From the NCBI GenBank assembly GCA_027083665.1, contig JALWNV010000246.1, forward strand, positions 1 through 11,980: a stretch of 11,980 nt of DNA, written 5' to 3'. Positions 1,518 through 10,698 of the stretch are shown here, piece after piece. Under the pieces are notes generated by a model, which was given only the letters and a program-made list of their open reading frames with translations, ran no database searches and had not been told where the DNA came from. Each line of letters begins with the position of its first letter. Within the stretch, counting starts at the first letter, position 1. A program made the position numbers and the translations under genes. Origin of the DNA: Helicobacteraceae bacterium. Lineage in GTDB: Bacteria; Campylobacterota; Campylobacteria; Campylobacterales; Sulfurimonadaceae.

Positions 1518-2301
1518 AGTCAAAACCATCTACGGCGTCTGGGACCTGTCGGGGAAAGTCCATTACCGCCATATCTCCGGCGACAGCACAACCGATATCG
1601 ACCAGATCGACCTCGACCTGGCAGGCCTGCGCTGGAACTACGCCGATCTCGACGGCCATGTTATCGAGGCCTTCGCCTCCTGGGCGGCGAGCGAACTGGC
1701 CAGCGGGCTGGCGGCGGGGAACAAGATCGTCGGTTACTTTTTCGATGCCTTCGCCTCCTCGCTCGTCGCCGCGGTACAGGGAGAATTGACGCCGAAGCAG
1801 TTCATCGACGCATTTTTTGAATCGGGCGATCCCGTCTTTCACGACGTCAAGAATGTACTGACGACGATGGATGATCTCTCCGACCCGATGGGAACCGTCC
1901 GCGGTTCCGTCGCCGACTGCGGCGACCTCGACGCACTCGACGGCCTCGCGGCATACGACCCTGCCTACCCCGACGACGAGACGATCGTACGCATCGACGA
2001 TCTTAAAGTCTACGAAGGCAATAATACGCGATTCCGGCTGCACGACGGAGGGCATATCCAGTACTACAGCGACCGCTACCGCGGCGAAACGATCCGTATC
2101 CCGGTCACGCTGGATCAGGAGCTCTCTTCCATGGACGACCTCAGGGTCAGCGTCTACCTGCGGATACAAAACGCTCACCATTCGACCGGGCCGCTCAGCC
2201 TAGTCGGCAGCGACAAGGTCCGGATCGATTTCCGGTACGACGGCGGCAAGCTATGGTTTAACGGTATCTTGTCCAATCCGTTCGATTATCCGACGTTTTA
2301 G
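1401..2301 (+). CDS. Secreted modular protein (3' part after frameshift)
   Basis: From about 1401 the coding frame is offset by one base from the previous entry and runs to TAG at 2299-2301, starting NNDLSDIPVRQIY. Removing one A from the AAAA run at 1397-1400 would join the halves as YPSPGHFRNNDLSDIPV. The frame has no ATG or GTG before 1786 (a TTG without a good Shine-Dalgarno), so it is not an independent gene. The product has a Trp/Tyr/Asp-rich stretch, then a probable helical, small-residue-rich segment (SWAASELASGLAAG, DAFASSLVAAVQG), then a beta-rich C-terminal domain (IRIPVTLDQEL, LRVSVYLRIQNA, VRIDFRYDGGKLWFNG). It ends FDYPTF and lacks the MYLL-type tail of its neighbours. I do not recognise a family. 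The stop codon touches the ribosome binding site of the next gene, so the two are co-transcribed. Confidence 0.7.
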
Positions 2302-2304: not shown

Positions 2305-2310
2305 ATGAGG

Positions 2311-2607
2311 ATGAAACGTTTACGCGACTGCTTTTTGACATTGGCGATACTGCTGCTACCGGGCCTCCCGGCTTCGGCCTACGAATTCACCTGCACACAG
2401 CAGGTCCAAAATGCCTGCGGGGCGGACCTGCTGTGCCAGCTGCAGTACTTCACCTGCTGCCCCGCCGCCGACGTCCATCGCAAACAAGACTGCGAGATGT
2501 GCTCGGGCTACTGGATAGAAGACAGCGGCAGCTGCAGCGAAAACGACCCCGGTGCCGGCAAAGGCACCGACGCCCTTCCGGCAATCATCATGTATCTGCT
2601 GGGGTAA
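2311..2607 (+). CDS. Small secreted cysteine-rich protein with MYLL-type C-terminal tail
   Basis: 98 residues from the ATG at 2311. A clear Sec signal peptide (basic MKRLR, hydrophobic LTLAILLLPGLP, cut after PASA) leaves a mature protein of about 75 residues. The mature part has eight cysteines, spaced C-7-C-5-C-6-CC-10-C-2-C-10-C, enough for four disulfides in the periplasm or outside the cell. A flexible Gly/Asp linker (NDPGAGKGTD) then leads to LPAIIMYLLG at the very end. There is no lipobox, so it is not a lipoprotein. I do not recognise the family; a structural, binding or peptide-like role is possible. The gene follows the large modular gene without a gap and precedes the FG-GAP gene by 88 bases. 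Its tail matches those of the FG-GAP and TSP3/cadherin-like proteins, which implies a common sorting or assembly route (inference). Confidence 0.8.
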   Translation: MKRLRDCFLTLAILLLPGLPASAYEFTCTQQVQNACGADLLCQLQYFTCCPAADVHRKQDCEMCSGYWIEDSGSCSENDPGAGKGTDALPAIIMYLLG

Positions 2608-2626
2608 CCGGAATAAGGAAAAGAAA

Positions 2627-2646
2627 TTTGCAACGTTTTTGCAACG
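2627..2646 (+). repeat. 9-bp direct repeat TTTGCAACG in the gap before the FG-GAP gene
   Basis: TTTGCAACG occurs at 2627-2635 and 2638-2646, an 11-bp period, about one DNA turn apart. It sits in the 88-bp gap between the Cys-rich and FG-GAP genes. Weak -10-like words follow (CATAAT 2656-2661, TAAAAT 2673-2678) without a correctly spaced -35. It could be an operator for a separate promoter, or chance. Confidence 0.4.
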
Positions 2647-2695
2647 CCGAGGATGCATAATCGACTGAAGGATAAAATATGCCGAAAGGAAAAAC

Positions 2696-4129
2696 ATGAG
2701 ACGTTTGAAAAACATCATAGCCATCAGTGCGGCGGCGGTCGCGCTGCATGGGAACTGGAGCGAAGCGGGAAAAGTGGCGGGGGACCCTTCTTCCGCCGTA
2801 TCGTTCGGCTACAGTGTCGATACCGACGGGCAGTACGCGGCAGTCGGCGATCCCGGGGAGAACGCCGTCTACGTTTTCAAAGCCGATGCAAACGGAACAT
2901 GGCAGCCTTTCGACAAAATCGTCTCTCCGATGGTAGCGGTCTCTCTCTACGATGAGTTTCATTTTTTCGAGATCGGAACGGACCTCGCCATCGACGATCA
3001 AAGCGATGTCCATGGCAACGATGTGGTGTTGGCCATCGGCTCACCGAAAATCGACGAGTACGCCATAGGACAGACTTCTCCTCATAGCGGCATCCTCGTC
3101 TATCGCCTCAACAATACCGGCGACGGGTTCGACAAGAATACCACCTTCCTCACGGACGATTACAATACGAGCGGAAGGGCGGTCGATCTCGACTCCTACG
3201 CCAAAGCGACAGTACAAAATTTGAAATTCATCTGGCATGTCACCGAAATACTGGTTTCGGGCAAACCGGCAAGCGGAGAGGTCGAGCTGCACTACTATAG
3301 CGATCAGACGGACTGGAACGGGACGGTTGTCACCCCGAGTGCCGGAAACGGCGTTCGATTTGGCGAAAGCGTCGCGCTTTCGATCGAAGGCGCCCAATGG
3401 TACCTTGCCGTCGGAGCACCGGGTGAGGATGTGACCCATACGAACAGGGACGGCACTACAAGCACCTATCAGGGCAAAGGCGCCGCCTATCTGTACCGGC
3501 TCGACGAAGGTACCGATCCCGGTGAGCCCTGGATAACCGTAAACGACGAATACCGTCTGCACCAATCCATACCGATATTCCTGACACTCGATGAGGGCAT
3601 CGTGGAAGACTCCGCTTTCGGGACCGCCGTCGATCTCGAGAACAACGACACGACCTACGACACCGTGCGCCTGATCGTCGGCGCAGAAAAAGAGAATGTC
3701 GGCTACAGGGACAGGCTGGGCAACATCACTGCCGACGAAGGGGAAGCCGCCGTCTTCGCCATGACCGCTCCCCCACCCTCCTGGGCATGGGAACAGATGG
3801 GATATTCGCTGAAAGGCTCGACCGTCTCCTCCGTCGCCAACGGTTACGGTTCACATGTCGCCGTCAACGGCAATCTCGCCGTCGTCTCCGCACCCGATAT
3901 CGACAGCGGCAAAGGTGCCGTTTTCGCCTACGACTACAACGGAACGGCATGGACGGAACGCCCGCCGCTTCAGCCATTGAACGCGGACAGCTTCGGCAGC
4001 GATGTCGCCATCACGAACAGCCGGGTTGTCAGCGGCAACAAGAATGCCAAAGAAGTATCCATTTTCGACTACTCCCCCGACCAGCTGACGAACACCAGCC
4101 CCGCCTTGCTGATGTTCCTGCTGAACTGA
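2696..4129 (+). CDS. Secreted FG-GAP repeat (beta-propeller-like) protein with MYLL-type C-terminal tail
   Basis: 477 residues; the ATG at 2696 has AAAGGA five bases upstream. The N-terminus (MRRLKNIIAISAAAVAL) is a short Sec signal peptide, cut around residues 19-25. I count seven FG-GAP-like repeats, each of the form FGxxVxxx..VAVGAPxxxxxGxVxVF: roughly residues 37-61, 92-136, 159-200, 222-268, 308-355, 384-413 and 433-459. Seven is the blade number of integrin-alpha-type propellers, so the whole mature chain is probably one closed propeller. FG-GAP proteins are non-catalytic binding modules; partner and ligand are unknown here. The calcium loops usual between FG and GAP in integrins are not well conserved. 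After the last blade comes a short linker (SPDQLTNT) and then SPALLMFLLN. The gene is the last of the plus-strand block and faces the TSP3/cadherin-like gene. Confidence 0.85.
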   Translation: MRRLKNIIAISAAAVALHGNWSEAGKVAGDPSSAVSFGYSVDTDGQYAAVGDPGENAVYVFKADANGTWQPFDKIVSPMVAVSLYDEFHFFEIGTDLAIDDQSDVHGNDVVLAIGSPKIDEYAIGQTSPHSGILVYRLNNTGDGFDKNTTFLTDDYNTSGRAVDLDSYAKATVQNLKFIWHVTEILVSGKPASGEVELHYYSDQTDWNGTVVTPSAGNGVRFGESVALSIEGAQWYLAVGAPGEDVTHTNRDGTTSTYQGKGAAYLYRLDEGTDPGEPWITVNDEYRLHQSIPIFLTLDEGIVEDSAFGTAVDLENNDTTYDTVRLIVGAEKENVGYRDRLGNITADEGEAAVFAMTAPPPSWAWEQMGYSLKGSTVSSVANGYGSHVAVNGNLAVVSAPDIDSGKGAVFAYDYNGTAWTERPPLQPLNADSFGSDVAITNSRVVSGNKNAKEVSIFDYSPDQLTNTSPALLMFLLN

Positions 4130-4147
4130 GGCTGTTTCGGTCAGTTC
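4123..4147 (+). other. Inverted repeat over the stop codon of the FG-GAP gene
   Basis: GAACTGA (4123-4129) and TCAGTTC (4141-4147) pair perfectly around an 11-base loop, and the first arm contains the TGA stop. No T-run follows, so it is not a classical intrinsic terminator. It may stabilise the mRNA 3' end or be coincidental. Confidence 0.35.
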
Positions 4148-4488
4148 CGCAAAAGGTAGCAGGCAGGGGCAGCTTCGCAGCCGGGCATTGTCGTCAGTGC
4201 GGCTGTGTTTCATTTTATCCTGAAAGGTGCCACCCGTACCGGAATGCTTAGGCCGGGTCGCGAGCTTTGCGGCGTACCGGAGCTCAGGTCCCGATCGAAA
4301 ACGGCGACAACGCGACAAAAGCGGAGCGTATCTCCATCTGCTCTTTTGTTTACTGCAGGTATCGACAATATCTCAAAACATACCTATCCGATAAATATCA
4401 TCTATCCTTATTGCAGCACTTTGATTTTCTTGACGCACCACCCTGAAGGGTGATTTTTGAAGCCTCGGCGGAGAAACGTATCCGTTTC
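4130..4488. other. Convergent intergenic region, no gene seen
   Basis: This 359-bp stretch lies between the stop codons of two convergent genes. Its left two thirds (to about 4330) are GC-rich and do not read as protein in any frame; they contain CGTACCGGA twice (4234-4242, 4272-4280) and GAGCT/AGCTC-type self-complementary arms (4261-4284). Bases 4340-4436 are AT-rich. A plus-strand terminator-like hairpin (4439-4458) and a hairpin overlapping the minus-strand stop (4471-4490) close the region. The short frame at 4205-4453 lacks a ribosome binding site and coding character. Confidence 0.6.
4439..4458 (+). terminator. Probable rho-independent terminator, plus strand
   Basis: CACCC (4439-4443) pairs with GGGTG (4448-4452) around TGAA and is followed by ATTTTT. 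The stem is short but GC-rich, and the T-run makes it plus-strand specific. It would end transcripts of the plus-strand block about 310 bases after the FG-GAP stop codon, giving a long 3' UTR, or end a small RNA from the intergenic region. Confidence 0.5.
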
Positions 4489-4490
4489 TC
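4471..4490 (-). terminator. Hairpin over the stop codon of the TSP3/cadherin-like gene
   Basis: GAGAAACG and CGTTTCTC form a perfect 8-bp stem with a four-base loop. On the minus strand it begins inside the TGA stop (4489-4491). No T-run follows in that direction, so it is an mRNA-end hairpin and only possibly a terminator. Confidence 0.35.
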
Positions 4491-7389
4491 AGTCGAGCAG
4501 ATACATGATGATCGGAGCCATTACCGGAGCGGTCTGCGGATAATCGTTCGGATCGCTCGGATCGGTGCCTTCGGCATATTCGGTGCCGTTGTCGAAACCG
4601 TCTCCGTCGGCATCGAGTGCGGCGTCCGCCGTGTTCGGGTCGAGATAGCCCGGATACTGCATCTCGTAGGTATCGGGCATGCCGTCGCCGTCGCTGTCGT
4701 GGTCGTAACGGTAGAGATGGACCGTGGCGACACCCGAATAGTCCTTGCCGTCGTAGGCACGGTAGGTAAACGAATCGTCCGCATAGGCCGCATCGCGCGT
4801 ATAGCTGAAACTGCCGTCGGCCTGCAGGGTGAACGACGCCGCGTGCACCGGGGCGCTGACCAGCACCGCCGAGAGCGGATCTTCGTCACCGTCGCTGTCG
4901 TTCGAAAGCACCCCGTTCGACGCGCCGACGGTAAGCGAAGCACCCGAGGCGACATAATAGGCATCGTCGCCGGCGAGCGGCGCGGTGGAGTTCATCACGA
5001 CGATCCTGACATCGCGCGATTCGGAATGGACCGGGGTGCCGTTTTCGAATACCGTCAGGTAAAGACGATAGCTTCCTTCCCCGCCCAGCGTCACGAAGCC
5101 CGGGGCGAGATCCGTGGAGAGCACCGTCGCGTTGAGATCCCATTCGTAGGAGAGGTCGCTGTAGCTGCCGCCGCTTTGCACCCCCTCGAGCCAGACCGGC
5201 GTACCGGAGAGAATCGTCAGATTCGTCGTCGGACGGCGAATGTGAAAATCCGCGGCACAGGCATCGCCGAAACCGTCACCGTCGCTGTCGGCCTGATCGG
5301 GATTGGGAACCTGCAGGCAGTTGTCGAGGAAGTCCTCCACGCCGTCGCCGTCGCTGTCGCCATGCAGATCCGGCAGCATCAGGCAGCTGTTCGCTCTGTC
5401 GGCGGGGCAGGGATCGTTGATATCCACCAAACCGTCGCCGTCGCTGTCGACGGCCTGCGGAGTGGAGAACAGGATATACGGCTGCATCATTTCGACATCA
5501 TTCGGGATGAGATCGCTGTCGAAGTCCCCTGCGGGATTGAGCAGCTGCGCATCCACTTCGCGCAGCAGCTTCGGCTCAACCGTATACTGCAGCCGCGCCC
5601 GGTAGACGGCATCGGGATCGTACCTGACGGGCAGCGAGGCATTGGTATCCGCTTTTTGCAAAATCGCGGCCAGCGCATGGGTCGCCGTCGCGAGATTGGT
5701 CAGATTGGCATCGGGAAGGTACAGGGCGTTCGATTGTGCGAGAAACGGATCGAAATAGCCGTCTTCCATATCCGTCCGCAGATGCGTATGCAGCGCGTTC
5801 ATCGTCGATCCGTTGATATCCAGACGGTTGCGCATGATCGCCGCCGCCCCCGCTGCATTGCGCGACGCCCGGTCACCCAGCAGTACCATCGGACCGCTGT
5901 CGCCGCCGTCCACCCAGGCGATCACCGCCTCGGTCAGGGCGACATCCATGGAGCTGTACGGTGTCAACAGAACCTCCTTGCTGACGACAAGATGGTCGTG
6001 CAGGTAGCGGACAAAGGCGTTTTCCCACTCCGCCGCGCTTTCCCAGCCGTAACCGTTGGCTTCGGTCAGCTCGGGCAGCACCGCTTTGGGCAGCAGATCA
6101 CCGCTGCTGTCGACCCATGCCTTGGCCGCCCATTTGTTTGTCCGGCTCGCATTGTCCTCGACGGCATAGACCACGGCGGGATTTCCGGCCGGAATCCGCA
6201 GTCCCATCGGCAGCGCTCCTGATTGCAGATACCCTTCGGCGATCGGAGCCTGAAAGCGTACCGGCAGATCCGTCAGGCTGTAGCTGCTGTCGTATGCCTT
6301 GACCGTCGCTTCGTCGGGCAGCTCGTCATAGGCGTACAGCGTCGTCCACTGCGTATCGAGGATACTTAACGTCGCCGTCGGTACGAACGGTCCGCTCTCG
6401 TCCGATTTCGATATCCTTCCGCCGAGCAGATACTCCACCTCGTACAGCCGTGTCGCCGAAGGGCGGTCAACCCACGGAAAACGGGTCGCGTCATACTTGA
6501 GCGTATCGTTCTTGTTCGTCTGCCGCAGGTTCTCCTCGTCGAAATCCGACCAGCCGTCATTGTCACTGTCAAGCGGTGCGTCGCCCGCCGAAGACGGATC
6601 GCTGCCGCGCAGCGCCTCGTCGAAATCCGACCAGCCGTCGCCGTCGCTATCTTGCGCGAGATTGTCCGAAAACGGATCGAGCCCGTGTTCGATTTCCCAG
6701 CTGTCGGGCACGCCGTCGCCGTCGCTGTCGCGCATGGGGTCGGAACCCTGAATGCGGATCACCGAGCGTACCGCATCGGCGCTGTTGCCGTCGTAGCCGA
6801 CACGAAAATCGATCGTGTAATCCCCATCTTCGTAAAGATAGAACGACACGAGAAAGCCGTCGTTTTCATCCCAGCTCACCGTCTTGCTGTAATGCGTACC
6901 GTTGATCCACCAGGTAAAATCGGCCGGATGGGTCTGCGGATCCGCGGTTCGAGACGGGACGGCGCGCAAATCGACCTTGACCGTTTTGTCGAACACGCTG
7001 CTTGCGGGTGAAATGTACGCTTCGGGCTGTGTCCCGGCCGCGCTGCCGCCTCCGATATCGAGGCCGCTCACCGAGCAGCCCGCCGCGAATGCTGCAGACG
7101 GCAGACTCCCCGACAGCCGGTTGACCAGCACACTCTGCTTGGCGAGGTCCACCAGGTTAACCGTTTCACTCGCGCCGCTGTCAAACAGCACATCGACGCT
7201 TCCGCCGCCCGCATCGGAAGCCCCGACGCTCCAGTCGCCGCCGAGCGTCATCGACGACACCATCTGGCCGGTCAGGTCATCCAGCAGCCACGCGTTCGCA
7301 CGGGTGCCGTCGAAAACGGGCGACGCCGAAAGCAGCGACGCCGCAACTACCGAGAACATCCCTATCCATCCGGATCTTTTCGTTTTCAT
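4489..7389 (-). CDS. Large secreted calcium-loop protein: TSP3 repeats, PKD-like and cadherin-like domains, MYLL-type tail
   Basis: 966 residues from the ATG at 7389, chosen because AAGGAG lies six bases upstream and a proper signal peptide follows (MKTKRSGW, then MFSVVAASLLSA). An ATG at 7410 overlaps the previous stop as ATGA but adds only MRAKERT. A beta-rich PKD-like region spans about 130-210 (FTWWINGTHYSK..DGDYTIDFRVG). Thrombospondin type 3 loops (DSDGDG) cluster at 217-290 and 621-708, the latter with the canonical DNCLQVPNPDQADSDGDG form. An unrecognised region covers 290-620. A second PKD-like domain is at about 721-793, and a cadherin-like (Big_9 type) domain at 803-891 (GDDAYYVASG..GVLSNDSDGDEDPL..ADGSFSYT..DSFTYRAYDG). 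Two more calcium loops (DSDGDGMPD, DADGDGFDN) precede APIIMYLLD. TSP3 loops bind Ca2+ and stiffen extracellular rods, so a surface stalk or adhesin is likely (inference). Confidence 0.85.
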   Translation of the reverse strand: MKTKRSGWIGMFSVVAASLLSASPVFDGTRANAWLLDDLTGQMVSSMTLGGDWSVGASDAGGGSVDVLFDSGASETVNLVDLAKQSVLVNRLSGSLPSAAFAAGCSVSGLDIGGGSAAGTQPEAYISPASSVFDKTVKVDLRAVPSRTADPQTHPADFTWWINGTHYSKTVSWDENDGFLVSFYLYEDGDYTIDFRVGYDGNSADAVRSVIRIQGSDPMRDSDGDGVPDSWEIEHGLDPFSDNLAQDSDGDGWSDFDEALRGSDPSSAGDAPLDSDNDGWSDFDEENLRQTNKNDTLKYDATRFPWVDRPSATRLYEVEYLLGGRISKSDESGPFVPTATLSILDTQWTTLYAYDELPDEATVKAYDSSYSLTDLPVRFQAPIAEGYLQSGALPMGLRIPAGNPAVVYAVEDNASRTNKWAAKAWVDSSGDLLPKAVLPELTEANGYGWESAAEWENAFVRYLHDHLVVSKEVLLTPYSSMDVALTEAVIAWVDGGDSGPMVLLGDRASRNAAGAAAIMRNRLDINGSTMNALHTHLRTDMEDGYFDPFLAQSNALYLPDANLTNLATATHALAAILQKADTNASLPVRYDPDAVYRARLQYTVEPKLLREVDAQLLNPAGDFDSDLIPNDVEMMQPYILFSTPQAVDSDGDGLVDINDPCPADRANSCLMLPDLHGDSDGDGVEDFLDNCLQVPNPDQADSDGDGFGDACAADFHIRRPTTNLTILSGTPVWLEGVQSGGSYSDLSYEWDLNATVLSTDLAPGFVTLGGEGSYRLYLTVFENGTPVHSESRDVRIVVMNSTAPLAGDDAYYVASGASLTVGASNGVLSNDSDGDEDPLSAVLVSAPVHAASFTLQADGSFSYTRDAAYADDSFTYRAYDGKDYSGVATVHLYRYDHDSDGDGMPDTYEMQYPGYLDPNTADAALDADGDGFDNGTEYAEGTDPSDPNDYPQTAPVMAPIIMYLLD
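6534..6639 (-). repeat. 25-nt direct repeat coding for a duplicated TSP3 loop
   Basis: The same 25 bases, beginning CCTCGTCGAAATCC and ending CAGCCGTC, occur at 6534-6558 and 6615-6639, 81 bases (27 codons) apart and in frame. Each encodes DGWSDFDE inside a calcium loop. This looks like a fairly recent in-frame duplication of one repeat unit. Confidence 0.7.
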
Positions 7390-7395
7390 TGTTCG

Positions 7396-7401
7396 CTCCT
7401 T
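7396..7401 (-). promoter_or_regulatory. Ribosome binding site deciding the TSP3/cadherin-like gene start
   Basis: AAGGAG on the minus strand is six bases before the ATG at 7389. It lies 3' of the overlapping ATG at 7410, which has no comparable site, so 7389 is the better start. The preceding gene stops 17 bases upstream, consistent with an operon. Confidence 0.7.
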
Positions 7402-7406
7402 CGCTC

Positions 7407-9779
7407 TCATGGCGCCACCGCCTGAACCCAGCCGGTCTGTTTGTAGCCCGTAATCTCGCCCTTGCGGTCGAAATACACGATCTGATAGCGGTAATATTTT
7501 CCGATCTCGTGTGCGAAGAGATCGCGGTACACCATCTTGTACTCGTCGACAACATCGTCACCCACACGGTAATGCACCAGCGTCACAAAAGGATCTTCCA
7601 CCCGCGATGCGCTGCTGCAATAGAGCCGGTCGATCAGCGGCGAAACCTGATAATACGCCGATGCGCCCGCCGCACCCGGCTCGTCCGCCTCCTGGCGGTA
7701 AACGACGAAAGCGAAACTGTCGCCCAGCGCGTCGCGCAGCAGTTTGCACAGGCGGCAGTCTCCCTGGATAGGCCCGTTGACGAGACAGTGATTCGCGCCG
7801 TACAGACAGTCAGGCACGATGCCGCGGCCGCACCCTTCTCCTTCCACATCGATGGTATCCGTCAGCTCGATGATCGGTAAACCGTCATATCTGAAATAAC
7901 CTGCGTTCAGACTGCCGTCGTTTTCGGGCAGAGCGATCTTGGGCCAGGGGATATACTGCGGAAGTACCGCCGCTTCGGGCTGACGGATCGCACATACCTC
8001 GTCCGACCACTCCGAATACGCCTCTTCGGGCGCTCCGCCGGTCTTGCCCAGCGTGCGGGCGTGAAAACACCACTCCTCCTGCCACTCGCTGCCCGGGGGC
8101 GGTGCCGTGATCGATACCTGCAGACTCTGCGTTCCGTCGGCCGAAAGGTTTTGCTTGTCATATGGCACCAGATCACTGTGATAGGACGATCCGTCCTTGC
8201 GGTACCACTCCAGCATCGTCGCCACGATCGTCTGCTTCGGCGGCGCCCACACGATCGTCGCCGACGGCTCCGTCGCCGACGGCACGATGGAAACGGCCTG
8301 CGGTGCGAACACTTTCATCGTGAAAGGCCGGATGACGCACGGCGCGCGAAAGCGCATCGAACTCTCGGCGTTGTCGTTTTGCAGCTCATACTCTACGCAG
8401 AGCTCACCCCCGCCGAATTGCGGCGTCTCGATGGGCACCAGACCCCCAAACGGAGGACAATGTGTCCCTTCGAGATAGTAGACCCCGTTGACACGGTAGC
8501 CGACCTTGATACAGTCATCGATACCCGACGGATCGAGATAAATCGGTTCGTCCGTGACCGTGCCGTCTTCGGGCGGCTCGACCTCTCCGCCGCACTCCGC
8601 GGTGAGCTCCGCCGTATCCGAAGGCTCGGAGAGGTTGGAGTCGCTCTGCTCGTCGTAGACGAAGCTGCACAGCCAGCGCGAAACGGTCGTCTCGGCCAGT
8701 TTCGTGCCGTCGGCTTTGTAGAAACGGGCTGCGACTTCACTCGAACAGCGGGTATTGATATCGTTGAGGCGGCGGCACTCCGCGGCATCGAGATAGGCCG
8801 TTTTCGCCTGCGCGGCGAAATAGCCCTCGGCACGAAGCGTTTTCGTCATCAGCACTCTTTCGTCCGAAGCGCAGCCGATCGTTCCGTAGTCCGCTTTTTT
8901 CGAAAAGTCCAGAAACACCGGGTGCGGAATACCGCCTTCGACGTTCGACGTACTCTCCGAGCCGGCGGAGTACCAGCACCGCTTCGTACCGATCCGGTCC
9001 GCCGGCCGGTCGGGCAGCGCGCGTTTCGGAAAAAAGGCCCGCACCGGCTGGCTCAGCTCGCTGAGCTGCCCGTTGGCGTCTCGCGTGGCGATGCGGTACC
9101 AGAAATACTTCCCTTTGTGCAGCGGCACCTCCGTATCGGTGAACGTCACGACGGATTTGCCGCCGATACGCGCCGCAGGTACCGCAGCGACCCGCGCCGC
9201 GAGATAGTTCGGATACGGCAGCGTTCCGGCGGCGTCGTATTTGCAGGCGGTTCCCGGCAGGCGCAGCAGCGCCGCTCCCGCGACGGGTGCCGACTCGTCA
9301 CTGTCGCTGTAGCCGTCACCGTCGCTGTCTTTGAAGTTTTGCGCCGCCGCCACGCTGTCGAAACGGTAGACGAGGTACTCCTGCGGATCGAGCGCGATAC
9401 GTCGCGTCGTGTTGGCGTCGCAGCTTTGATCCGCGCCGACCCACTCCAGATCCTTGTCGAGCCGCGCCGTCGGCAGGTTGCAGTATTTCCGTCCGCGGGT
9501 ATGTTCGGCATAATAGTTCGCGACGTCGGTATTGAGCCACTCCAGTCTGAATGTGTCGTCATGGGTATATTTCGTCGTCCAGACATTCCACGGCGCCGGC
9601 GGCGGGGTCATATCGGGGACCGTGACGTTGAGTTCGTCGGAAGTCTGCGAATAGTTACCCGTGAAATCGCGTGCGACGGCGAAACAGTAGCGGCGGTCTC
9701 CCGGCCCCATGCCTTTTTCCCGCAAATCATCCGGCAGCAGCATTAGCTGCGAAAAGGGCGGATTCCATCCTTTGTAGCG
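7407..9779 (-). CDS. Secreted fibronectin-III-like protein, 3' part after frameshift
   Basis: The reading frame makes sense from at least codon 9779 (RYKGWNPPFSQLM), continues through the first ATG at 9743 and ends AVAP-TGA at 7407-7409. It has no signal peptide and no ribosome binding site of its own, and it starts in the middle of a fibronectin-III-like domain, so it is the continuation of the next entry. Domain-like stretches with FN3-style ends recur: RRYCFAVARDFTGNYS, KYFWYRIATRDANGQLS, EWCFHARTLGKTGGAP, KYYRYQIVYFDRKGEI. One TSP3-type calcium loop (KDSDGDGYSDSDE) lies near residue 455 of the joined protein. Many cysteines, including a cluster near the end (GCGRGIVPDCLYGANHC, GDCRLC), suggest disulfides outside the cytoplasm. 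It ends GWVQAVAP with no MYLL-type tail. FN3 modules are spacers or binding domains; the ligand is unknown. Confidence 0.75.
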   Translation of the reverse strand, partial: RYKGWNPPFSQLMLLPDDLREKGMGPGDRRYCFAVARDFTGNYSQTSDELNVTVPDMTPPPAPWNVWTTKYTHDDTFRLEWLNTDVANYYAEHTRGRKYCNLPTARLDKDLEWVGADQSCDANTTRRIALDPQEYLVYRFDSVAAAQNFKDSDGDGYSDSDESAPVAGAALLRLPGTACKYDAAGTLPYPNYLAARVAAVPAARIGGKSVVTFTDTEVPLHKGKYFWYRIATRDANGQLSELSQPVRAFFPKRALPDRPADRIGTKRCWYSAGSESTSNVEGGIPHPVFLDFSKKADYGTIGCASDERVLMTKTLRAEGYFAAQAKTAYLDAAECRRLNDINTRCSSEVAARFYKADGTKLAETTVSRWLCSFVYDEQSDSNLSEPSDTAELTAECGGEVEPPEDGTVTDEPIYLDPSGIDDCIKVGYRVNGVYYLEGTHCPPFGGLVPIETPQFGGGELCVEYELQNDNAESSMRFRAPCVIRPFTMKVFAPQAVSIVPSATEPSATIVWAPPKQTIVATMLEWYRKDGSSYHSDLVPYDKQNLSADGTQSLQVSITAPPPGSEWQEEWCFHARTLGKTGGAPEEAYSEWSDEVCAIRQPEAAVLPQYIPWPKIALPENDGSLNAGYFRYDGLPIIELTDTIDVEGEGCGRGIVPDCLYGANHCLVNGPIQGDCRLCKLLRDALGDSFAFVVYRQEADEPGAAGASAYYQVSPLIDRLYCSSASRVEDPFVTLVHYRVGDDVVDEYKMVYRDLFAHEIGKYYRYQIVYFDRKGEITGYKQTGWVQAVAP

Positions 9780-10698
9780 CCGCGCTGATCGTCACCGGGC
9801 GGTCGTTGAGTTTCACCAGCCACGACGGCATGATCGGCTCCCCCCGGCTGTCGTATCCGCCTGCGGAGGCCAGCGCCGCGATATCGACCGGCGAAGCGGG
9901 CGGTGTGTCGGTCGTCGTACAGTACAGATCGTATCCCGAAATCATCAGGGCGTTGCCGTACTTCTCGACTTTGTTCGTACCGGGATGGCTCCAGTTGAGA
10001 TAGAGCGTGCCGTGCTCCTTGAAGCGTTCGGGTGCGTCACATCGTCCGACACCGTGCACCTGCTCGAAATCGGTGACTTTCGGCAGCGGCTGCACGGAGC
10101 CGACCGCCACACTCGCTTCCCCCATCCGTACATATTGCGGTGTTCCGCTGGCATTGTTTTCCGCCAGCAACTCATAACGGTAGGTATGCCCGCCCGCCAC
10201 GGAAGCGTCGATCATTCCCCGGTACCTCGCCCGCGCGATATTGAAGTCGTTCCGGCCGGCGAGCATTCCCCACATCGGAGCGTTTTCATCGTGCAGATGA
10301 TCGTAGATAACCTGTGCAAAGTTCGAGGCATCGACACGGTAAGGCGGGTCGCTCTGCGCGCCTTCATCGTCGAGCCAGGCAATCGTCTCGGCTTTGCGCC
10401 GGGCCTGCTCCGCCGGAGCGTAGAGTGCGGCGATCGCCTCCGCCGTCATCGTCGTCCGCGCCGGAAACGCCGCGATCTGCGTTCCGTCGCGCTTGACGAC
10501 AAACCGGTCGATATCCGCCGGAAGACTCCCTTCGACCACGTCCCAGCGGAGATAGACGACTTCGGGCGCCTGTGCCGTCATGGAATCCGCCGGAGCGCTT
10601 CTGGCCAGAAAATAGAACTGGTCGCTTTCCGCGGCATGCAGCACGGCAGCCGTCAGCACCCCCGCCATCATCGTCAAGATCCATTGAATCGTTCGCAT
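9727..10698 (-). CDS. Secreted fibronectin-III-like protein, 5' part (frameshifted)
   Basis: The ATG at 10698 has AGGAG six bases upstream (10706-10710), overlapping the stop of the previous gene. A clear Sec signal peptide (MRTIQW, then ILTMMAGVLTAAVLHA) is followed by an FN3-like domain with a large helical insert (PEVVYLRWDVVEG..DRFVVKRDG; insert with YAPAEQARRKAE; then HTYRYELLAEN) and the start of a second (GTLYLNWSHPG..ISGYDLYC). Near 9780-9790 (around KLNDRPVTISA) the frame fails: its last ~17 residues (LQRMESALFAANAAAG) are out-of-frame sequence, while the overlapping frame continues the FN3 domain. One extra base in the GCGCGGCGC stretch would explain it. Joined, the two parts encode about 1096 residues. 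The gene sits between two other secreted-protein genes in the minus-strand operon, which supports a shared surface assembly. Confidence 0.75.
   Translation of the reverse strand: MRTIQWILTMMAGVLTAAVLHAAESDQFYFLARSAPADSMTAQAPEVVYLRWDVVEGSLPADIDRFVVKRDGTQIAAFPARTTMTAEAIAALYAPAEQARRKAETIAWLDDEGAQSDPPYRVDASNFAQVIYDHLHDENAPMWGMLAGRNDFNIARARYRGMIDASVAGGHTYRYELLAENNASGTPQYVRMGEASVAVGSVQPLPKVTDFEQVHGVGRCDAPERFKEHGTLYLNWSHPGTNKVEKYGNALMISGYDLYCTTTDTPPASPVDIAALASAGGYDSRGEPIMPSWLVKLNDRPVTISAALQRMESALFAANAAAG

What the first reader, a model, noticed from the sequence alone, without database searches (positions are those of the whole stretch)
2575..4518. Shared C-terminal tail on three unrelated secreted proteins: candidate new sorting or assembly tag
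Seen: the Cys-rich protein ends LPAIIMYLLG, the FG-GAP protein SPALLMFLLN, and the TSP3/cadherin-like protein APIIMYLLD, each directly before the stop. The pattern is P-(A)-[IL]-[IL]-M-[YF]-L-L-[GND]-stop, preceded by a flexible Pro/Asp/Thr/Gly linker. The three folds are unrelated, so common ancestry of whole proteins does not explain it. Known: C-terminal sorting signals such as LPXTG, PEP-CTERM, GlyGly-CTERM, type IX CTDs and the outer-membrane barrel terminal Phe look different (longer, with a basic end, or a folded domain). Inference: a short tag read after Sec export by a dedicated sorting, anchoring or polymerising factor.
Basis: partly seen in the sequence, partly recalled or inferred. 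Interest (0 to 1): 0.78.

Follow-up and report, generated by a model that had tools for sequence, protein, structure and literature searches.

The report
Short C-terminal tag on secreted proteins
A handful of bacteria related to Sulfurovum end many quite different exported proteins with the same nine-residue, greasy tail, which looks like a new kind of address label read after export, although the protein that reads it has not been found.

Summary
The window tails are APIIMYLLD, PALLMFLLN and PAIIMYLLG. Five more genes of this genome end alike: 8 in-frame hits, 0 in the reversed-pattern control. I collected 26 tagged genes in 8 genomes of Sulfurovum-like Campylobacterales. Their bodies are unrelated: FG-GAP, beta-helix, trypsin, Lcl_C, cadherin/Big_9 and TSP3, DUF285, Cys-rich. 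A crude signal-peptide rule is positive for 19 of 24. Consensus: P-[AS]-[LIV]-[LIM]-M-Y-L-L-[NDQG]-stop. In the 18 best FG-GAP relatives the tail is far more conserved than the linker before it (0.35 against 1.77 bits), and its codons vary, so selection acts on the peptide. AlphaFold draws it on two folds as a short helix after a linker. It lacks the membrane helix and basic end of CTERM signals. Eight trypsin relatives carry four residues after the motif, so a free C-terminus may not be needed. Best reading: a docking tag for post-Sec sorting; receptor and destination unknown.

The parts
2305..2607 (+). Cys-rich secreted protein (100 aa); signal-like N-terminus by eye (missed by the crude rule)
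   Evidence: 4 homologues found, all 4 keep the tail; no Pfam match at E 0.01 and no NCBIfam match at E 1
2578..2604 (+). tail PAIIMYLLG
2696..4129 (+). FG-GAP_2 protein (477 aa) with predicted signal peptide
   Evidence: PF14312, 1.2e-9; model mean pLDDT 85.6
4100..4126 (+). tail PALLMFLLN; modelled as helix 469-476 after the beta-rich body
4489..7410 (-). TSP3/cadherin-like (Big_9) protein (973 aa) with predicted signal peptide
   Evidence: PF17963 6.9e-12; PF18884 4.5e-7
4492..4518 (-). tail APIIMYLLD

Best explanation
The tail is a genuine, independently selected C-terminal docking tag carried by Sec-exported proteins of unrelated fold. After export through Sec, the passenger folds in the periplasm, and the last nine residues (Pro cap, then a hydrophobic M-Y-L-L core that probably forms a two-turn helix, then a small polar residue) stay exposed on a flexible linker. 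A receptor of the cell envelope binds this peptide in solution and passes the passenger to its place, most likely across or onto the outer membrane. Shown: the sequence pattern, its recurrence, the passenger diversity, peptide-level conservation, and the lack of a transmembrane segment and basic end. Predicted: signal peptides and the helix. Inferred: exposure, receptor, destination. A type II secretion pseudopilin (GspG) is over cut-off in 7 of 8 tagged genomes but also in 12 of 16 untagged ones, so T2SS is a possible export route and not a demonstrated one.
For: 8 in-frame hits in the own genome, control 0. 26 tagged genes in 8 genomes with about eight unrelated passenger types. Tagged ORFs have a predicted signal peptide in 19 of 24, against 31 of 196 untagged ORFs of the fetched loci that have one and no further TM (Fisher 5e-10), or 59 of 196 if TM proteins are allowed (5e-6); a first, stricter rule gave 16 of 22 against 19 of 182. 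In the 18 best FG-GAP hits, not picked by tail, the nine tail columns average 0.35 bits of entropy against 1.77 for the 25 columns before and 1.60 elsewhere; the only 9-column window as conserved overlaps the tail. Invariant residues are spelt with several codons (Leu -2 with 6, Leu -3 with 4), and outside related genes there is little shared DNA around the tails. The tag follows choice-of-anchor Q domains in three proteins, domains that NCBI names for preceding various anchoring signals (recalled). In trypsins a variable linker separates domain and motif. Models place an 8-residue helix after a linker on both an FG-GAP protein and a trypsin.
Against: No receptor was identified; localisation is unknown. 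Eight of the 120 listed trypsin relatives carry four residues after the motif (P0130, P0133, P0134, P0135, P0137, P0140, P0141, P0143). Looser tails (LPAITNYLLN, VPIISILLG) in trypsin relatives suggest a graded family rather than a crisp code. The helix is modelled with modest confidence (last blocks pLDDT 63 and 72). The tag is sporadic (5 of 228 family genomes by my patterns), and the patterns miss variants. The profile that found the FG-GAP hits was built from tagged proteins, tail included.
Confidence: 0.6

Rival explanations
1. The tail is a miniature recognition sequence of the XrtH-like exosortase (with its XrtH-associated membrane protein): a PEP-CTERM-like signal that lost its transmembrane part.
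For: A close XrtH-like gene is in 4 of the 5 tagged family genomes (G000, G009, G012, G029) and in 5 of 223 untagged ones, G005 counted although only a 36-residue piece at a contig end is seen (hypergeometric 6e-6, genus level only 0.02). G026, an untagged genome of G009's genus, keeps only a 58-residue piece of a close copy, as if the gene decayed there; counted as a sixth, the figure is 9e-6. Cys, Arg and His are invariant. XrtH is the best NCBIfam match for 3 of 4 copies scanned, above cut-off only for this genome's; XrtX is best for G001's; the neighbour matches XrtH_assoc below cut-off.
Against: Conventional VPL...TM...RR proteins, recognised by eye among weak profile hits, occur in this genome (L222) and in G009 (L215), and directly beside the enzyme in G070 and G071; none was recognised in G012 or G029, where few or no hits arose. 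G001 has the enzyme, is 99% complete, and shows no tag by three patterns (its one hit lies antisense to another gene). Tagged G251 and G252 show no exosortase (completeness not told), G253 only a distant one beside its own TM-bearing protein. G018 shows none, but is 65% complete. The tail is too short to span a membrane.
Confidence: 0.12
2. The tail is an assembly element: it docks into a neighbouring surface protein (for example the beta-helix family encoded directly downstream) so that the passengers build a shared extracellular layer.
For: A secreted FYVIP beta-helix-like gene follows a tagged gene directly in 5 loci of 4 genomes. Many passengers are adhesin- or matrix-like.
Against: That neighbour was not seen beside the tagged genes fetched from G251-G253. 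Tagged trypsins need no such role.
Confidence: 0.12
3. The tail is read by a C-terminal or PDZ-type periplasmic protease and controls processing or turnover.
For: Such proteases read nonpolar C-termini (recalled, not tested in any call).
Against: The position-specific M-Y-L-L pattern is stricter than such proteases are thought to need, and four residues follow it in eight trypsins.
Confidence: 0.1
4. The tails are shared by inheritance or gene conversion without function.
For: Six of the eight own-genome cases are FG-GAP relatives; related genes share DNA around the tail, and one unrelated pair shares 25 bases downstream.
Against: Unrelated passengers, diverse codons, and a tail much more conserved than its linker.
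Confidence: 0.05

Closest known systems
PEP-CTERM/exosortase (PMC1569441, passages seen), including XrtH-type variants
   Same: C-terminal, on unrelated Sec-exported proteins of one genome, sporadic between genomes
   Different: no transmembrane helix, no basic cluster; the exosortase present seems to have conventional substrates
GlyGly-CTERM/rhombosortase (PMC3237569, passages seen)
   Same: one C-terminal signal on many passengers; VesB, a serine protease, carries it in Vibrio cholerae (PMC6219818, start of abstract seen), and one beta-helix passenger here weakly matches the GlyGly protein rhombotarget A
   Different: no Gly/Ser motif, no TM, no basic end; rhombosortase not searched
MYXO-CTERM/myxosortase (PMC11980579, start of abstract seen)
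   Same: C-terminal tag on diverse surface proteins
   Different: no Cys, no TM, no basic end
Type IX secretion C-terminal domain (Por_Secre_tail, PF18962)
   Same: some distant FG-GAP relatives carry it where these carry the tag
   Different: a folded domain of about 80 residues (recalled) against nine residues
Short C-terminal docking peptides such as peroxisomal PTS1 or encapsulin cargo peptides (recalled)
   Same: a few residues at the C-terminus, read by a soluble or shell receptor
   Different: those act on cytosolic proteins; these passengers bear Sec signals

Membership tests
CTERM class of exosortase, rhombosortase or sortase substrates | signature motif near the C-terminus shared by unrelated secreted proteins | tested here: met
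CTERM class of exosortase, rhombosortase or sortase substrates | transmembrane helix after the motif | tested here: not met
   six to seven hydrophobic residues, then one residue and the stop
[quoted passage not shown]
   last residue N, D, Q or G in all 26 tails
CTERM class of exosortase, rhombosortase or sortase substrates | match to a curated CTERM model of NCBIfam | tested here: not met
   no CTERM model matched the tail of the 13 tagged proteins scanned of 26, at E up to 1
CTERM class of exosortase, rhombosortase or sortase substrates | sorting enzyme present wherever the signal is | tested here: inconclusive
   close XrtH-like gene in 4 of 5 tagged family genomes; none detected in G018, G251, G252; only a distant one in G253
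GlyGly-CTERM | rhombosortase in the genome | not tested
Type IX secretion substrate | C-terminal domain PF18962 | tested here: not met
   no such match at E 0.01 in the 13 tagged proteins scanned with Pfam
Type II secretion substrate | T2SS in the genome | tested here: inconclusive
   only GspG was sought: over cut-off in 7 of 8 tagged and 12 of 16 untagged genomes; not discriminating

The most novel reading that the evidence does not exclude
A sorting system of the Gram-negative envelope in which a nine-residue, transmembrane-free C-terminal helix is read after Sec export by a dedicated, still unknown receptor that serves many unrelated passengers, in parallel with an ordinary exosortase system of the same cell.
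Probability: 0.5. Interest if true: 0.86.

Novelty: new variant of a known kind. Interest (0 to 1): 0.72.

Why it matters
The C-terminal sorting signals of diderm bacteria that I compared keep a membrane helix that presents the motif to a membrane enzyme, or are folded domains. A nine-residue soluble tag would need another reading principle, closer to peroxisomal import than to sortases. It would help to annotate unknown surface proteins of Sulfurovum-like bacteria, and its shortness makes it easy to test by fusion.

Tried and rejected
Exosortase as reader: looked strong, weakened. In one search I opened only 5 of the returned loci (L215, L216, L217, L219, L222); the two VPL proteins among them were recognised by eye at E 0.0018 and 0.4, and genomes without exosortase also gave weak hits, of which only L217 (G008) was opened and is not such a protein. 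T2SS GspG as discriminating partner: no contrast. A loose pattern in 60 relatives: outside the tagged genomes hits were about as common as in the reversed control. The looser pattern hit 53 of 228 genomes; of its loci, the 25 outside tagged genomes (L110-L112, L116-L137) have at most 37 in-frame residues before the motif, so they are not gene ends; hits without a locus were not opened. Recurrent IIIYL[LF][ND] hits in genus g2 are of this kind in those opened. This search added G018 as one tagged genome. Relatives of the TSP3 protein in genome contigs: 69 pattern matches, none confirmed. Papers: seven searches (searches list 20 of 46 and 12 of 3,892); no listed title or abstract start describes such a tag; the string MYLLN gave 2 unrelated papers. 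Only listings and, for PMC1569441 and PMC3237569, found passages were seen.
Full report
What was checked. The window is contig C246 of a 1.77 Mb, 76% complete assembly. The named MAGs that share the tag are called Sulfurovum sp. or Helicobacteraceae, and G009 of the same family is one of them (same contigs as G254), so I place the window among Sulfurovum-like Campylobacterales (inference).

Recurrence. Eight in-frame hits of the strict tail lie in this genome, none for the reversed pattern: the Cys-rich protein, the TSP3/cadherin protein and six FG-GAP proteins (one interrupted by an assembly gap, L100). With a Pro added, the genome has 7 hits, while the 223 family genomes other than the five tagged ones have 26 together, about the level of the reversed control (29 in 228; Poisson 5e-11). 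A scan of the 257 Gb collection with PA[LI][LI]MYLLN-stop found 7 places; 6 are gene ends in Sulfurovum/Helicobacteraceae MAGs.

The set. From stretches around these hits I collected 26 tagged genes: 8 in G000 (own), 4 in G012, 4 in G009, 3 in G029, 3 in G251, 2 in G252, 1 in G253, 1 in G018. Two of them (L096:2217-3695, L104:9586-11439) depart at the Met or Pro position and were taken in by a looser expression beside strict ones. Passengers: FG-GAP 9; beta-helix 4 (three with a choice-of-anchor Q match; L096:2217-3695 by eye); an unnamed 673-675 aa family 3 (one scanned, no family); DUF285 2 (one scanned); Lcl_C 2; TSP3 2 (L109 by eye); trypsin 1; Big_9/cadherin 1; weak SBBP propeller 1; Cys-rich 1. 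L109 and L094 lack their 5' ends.

Selection on the peptide. Over the 24 tails whose frame starts inside the locus, Leu at -3 and -2 is invariant, Tyr/Phe at -4 is 23/1, Met at -5 is 22 of 24, Pro at -9 is 21 of 24. Leu -2 uses six codons. In an alignment of 24 FG-GAP proteins (7 from tag-found loci, 16 of the 18 best database hits, and P0053, taken because it bears the tail) the tail columns average 0.42 bits against 2.12 for the 25 columns before and 1.80 elsewhere. On the 18 best hits alone, not picked by tail, the figures are 0.35, 1.77 and 1.60; the only 9-column window as conserved overlaps the tail. The four Cys-rich relatives keep the tail (one with Thr for Met), while the linker changes. 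Of the 120 FG-GAP relatives listed out of 1450, 20 carry the tail by regular expression: the 18 best, P0053 and P0064. The others do not, and some of these carry the type IX domain PF18962.

Secretion. A crude signal-peptide rule is positive for 19 of 24 tagged and for 31 of 196 untagged ORFs of the fetched loci (without further TM), or 59 of 196 with TM allowed; the first, stricter rule gave 16 of 22 and 19 of 182. The five tagged misses are the Cys-rich protein and three members of one family, all with signal-like N-termini by eye, and the gap-truncated L100. The untagged set is mechanical ORFs of 90 aa or more from the fetched loci, including stretches of the untagged genomes G014, G001 and G019; it is not a whole proteome.

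Trypsins show the edges of the motif. For the trypsin of G012, 120 of 7162 relatives are listed. Regular expressions put 9 in the strict class, 15 in a looser class, 33 in a different tail (W-x-P-I-M-M-D-N-I-I-x-F-V-P type, loosely defined), and 63 in none; seven of the last are tag-like by eye, such as NSAVMMYLLHSSSL. Eight relatives carry four residues after the motif. So the reader of the tag, if there is one, may not need the free carboxylate. The alignment holds 33 chosen sequences (the query and 32 of the 120) and is not a random sample.

Structure. The AlphaFold model of the window FG-GAP protein (mean pLDDT 85.6) has strands to residue 459 and a separate helix 469-476; that of the trypsin (88.4) has a linker from 247 and a helix 260-267. 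Confidence at the tails is modest (63 and 72). I did not inspect contacts of the helix.

Partner search. GspG of type II secretion is over cut-off in 19 of 24 genomes tested, 7 of 8 tagged and 12 of 16 untagged. The exosortase model PF09721 matched 6 of 24: four tagged, plus G001 and G019. With a profile of the five close copies, 17 of 228 family genomes match: 8 full-length strong matches, a 36-residue piece at a contig end in G005, a 58-residue piece in G026, and 7 distant ones. Four of the five tagged family genomes are among the strong matches; the fifth, G018, is 65% complete. The gene pair (exosortase most like XrtH, plus a membrane protein weakly matching XrtH_assoc) has no adjacent TM-bearing substrate that I could recognise in the tagged genomes (this genome's contig is only 4.8 kb). 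But in G070 and G071 a VPL...TM...basic protein is its neighbour, and such proteins exist in this genome (L222, ends VPLSRNTLALILLLFALSSVWGISRRSA) and in G009 (L215). G251 and G252 have no detected exosortase; G253 has a distant one beside its own substrate. I therefore think that the exosortase and the tag are two parallel sorting classes, though the co-occurrence leaves the link open. Exosortase-type CTERMs have motif, TM helix and basic cluster (PMC1569441, PMC3237569, passages seen); the tag has only the first.

Conclusion. The tag is real, selected and attached to proteins with predicted signal peptides, and it lies where sorting signals lie. A docking tag read after Sec is the simplest account. 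Receptor, route and destination are inferred. I rate it a new variant of a known kind (C-terminal sorting signals) with an unusual design that lacks a membrane anchor.

Noticed in passing
L092:10494-12332, L093:1-887, L096:1112-2203, L097:8995-9981, L100:903-1991: A secreted beta-helix-like family beginning with a signal peptide and (D/N)FYVIP...VA(K/Q) lies directly downstream of a tagged gene in 5 loci of 4 genomes, itself without the tag where its end is seen; possible co-assembled partner.
   Followed up: partly
trypsin relatives P0132-P0239: A second conserved tail, roughly W-[VA]-P-I-M-M-[DG]-[DN]-I-[IT]-x-F-[VI]-P, ends 33 of 120 listed trypsin relatives by a loose expression, two of them (P0132, P0148) with a PPC domain; may be another tag of Campylobacterota.
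   Followed up: partly
L167, L168, L169, L171, L172, L215, L222: Sulfurovum relatives carry a VPL-type CTERM (motif, TM, basic end), in five of these seven loci beside an exosortase gene.
   Followed up: partly
L173 (G026): A 58-residue piece of a close XrtH-like exosortase remains beside the mnmG-like gene in this untagged genome, where the full gene sits in tagged G009 and G012; looks like a decayed copy.
   Followed up: no
L174, L175, L176: Another exosortase type in three genomes of genus g14 sits beside a protein ending in a Gly/Ser-containing motif, TM and RR.
   Followed up: no
window 7410-9743 and 9730-10698 (-); 3-1517 and 1786-2301 (+): Each pair may be one gene interrupted by a frame change or assembly error.
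   Followed up: no
L092, L093, L096, L103, L104: Two-component sensor kinases and/or response regulators (by eye) lie near the tagged genes in five loci.
   Followed up: no
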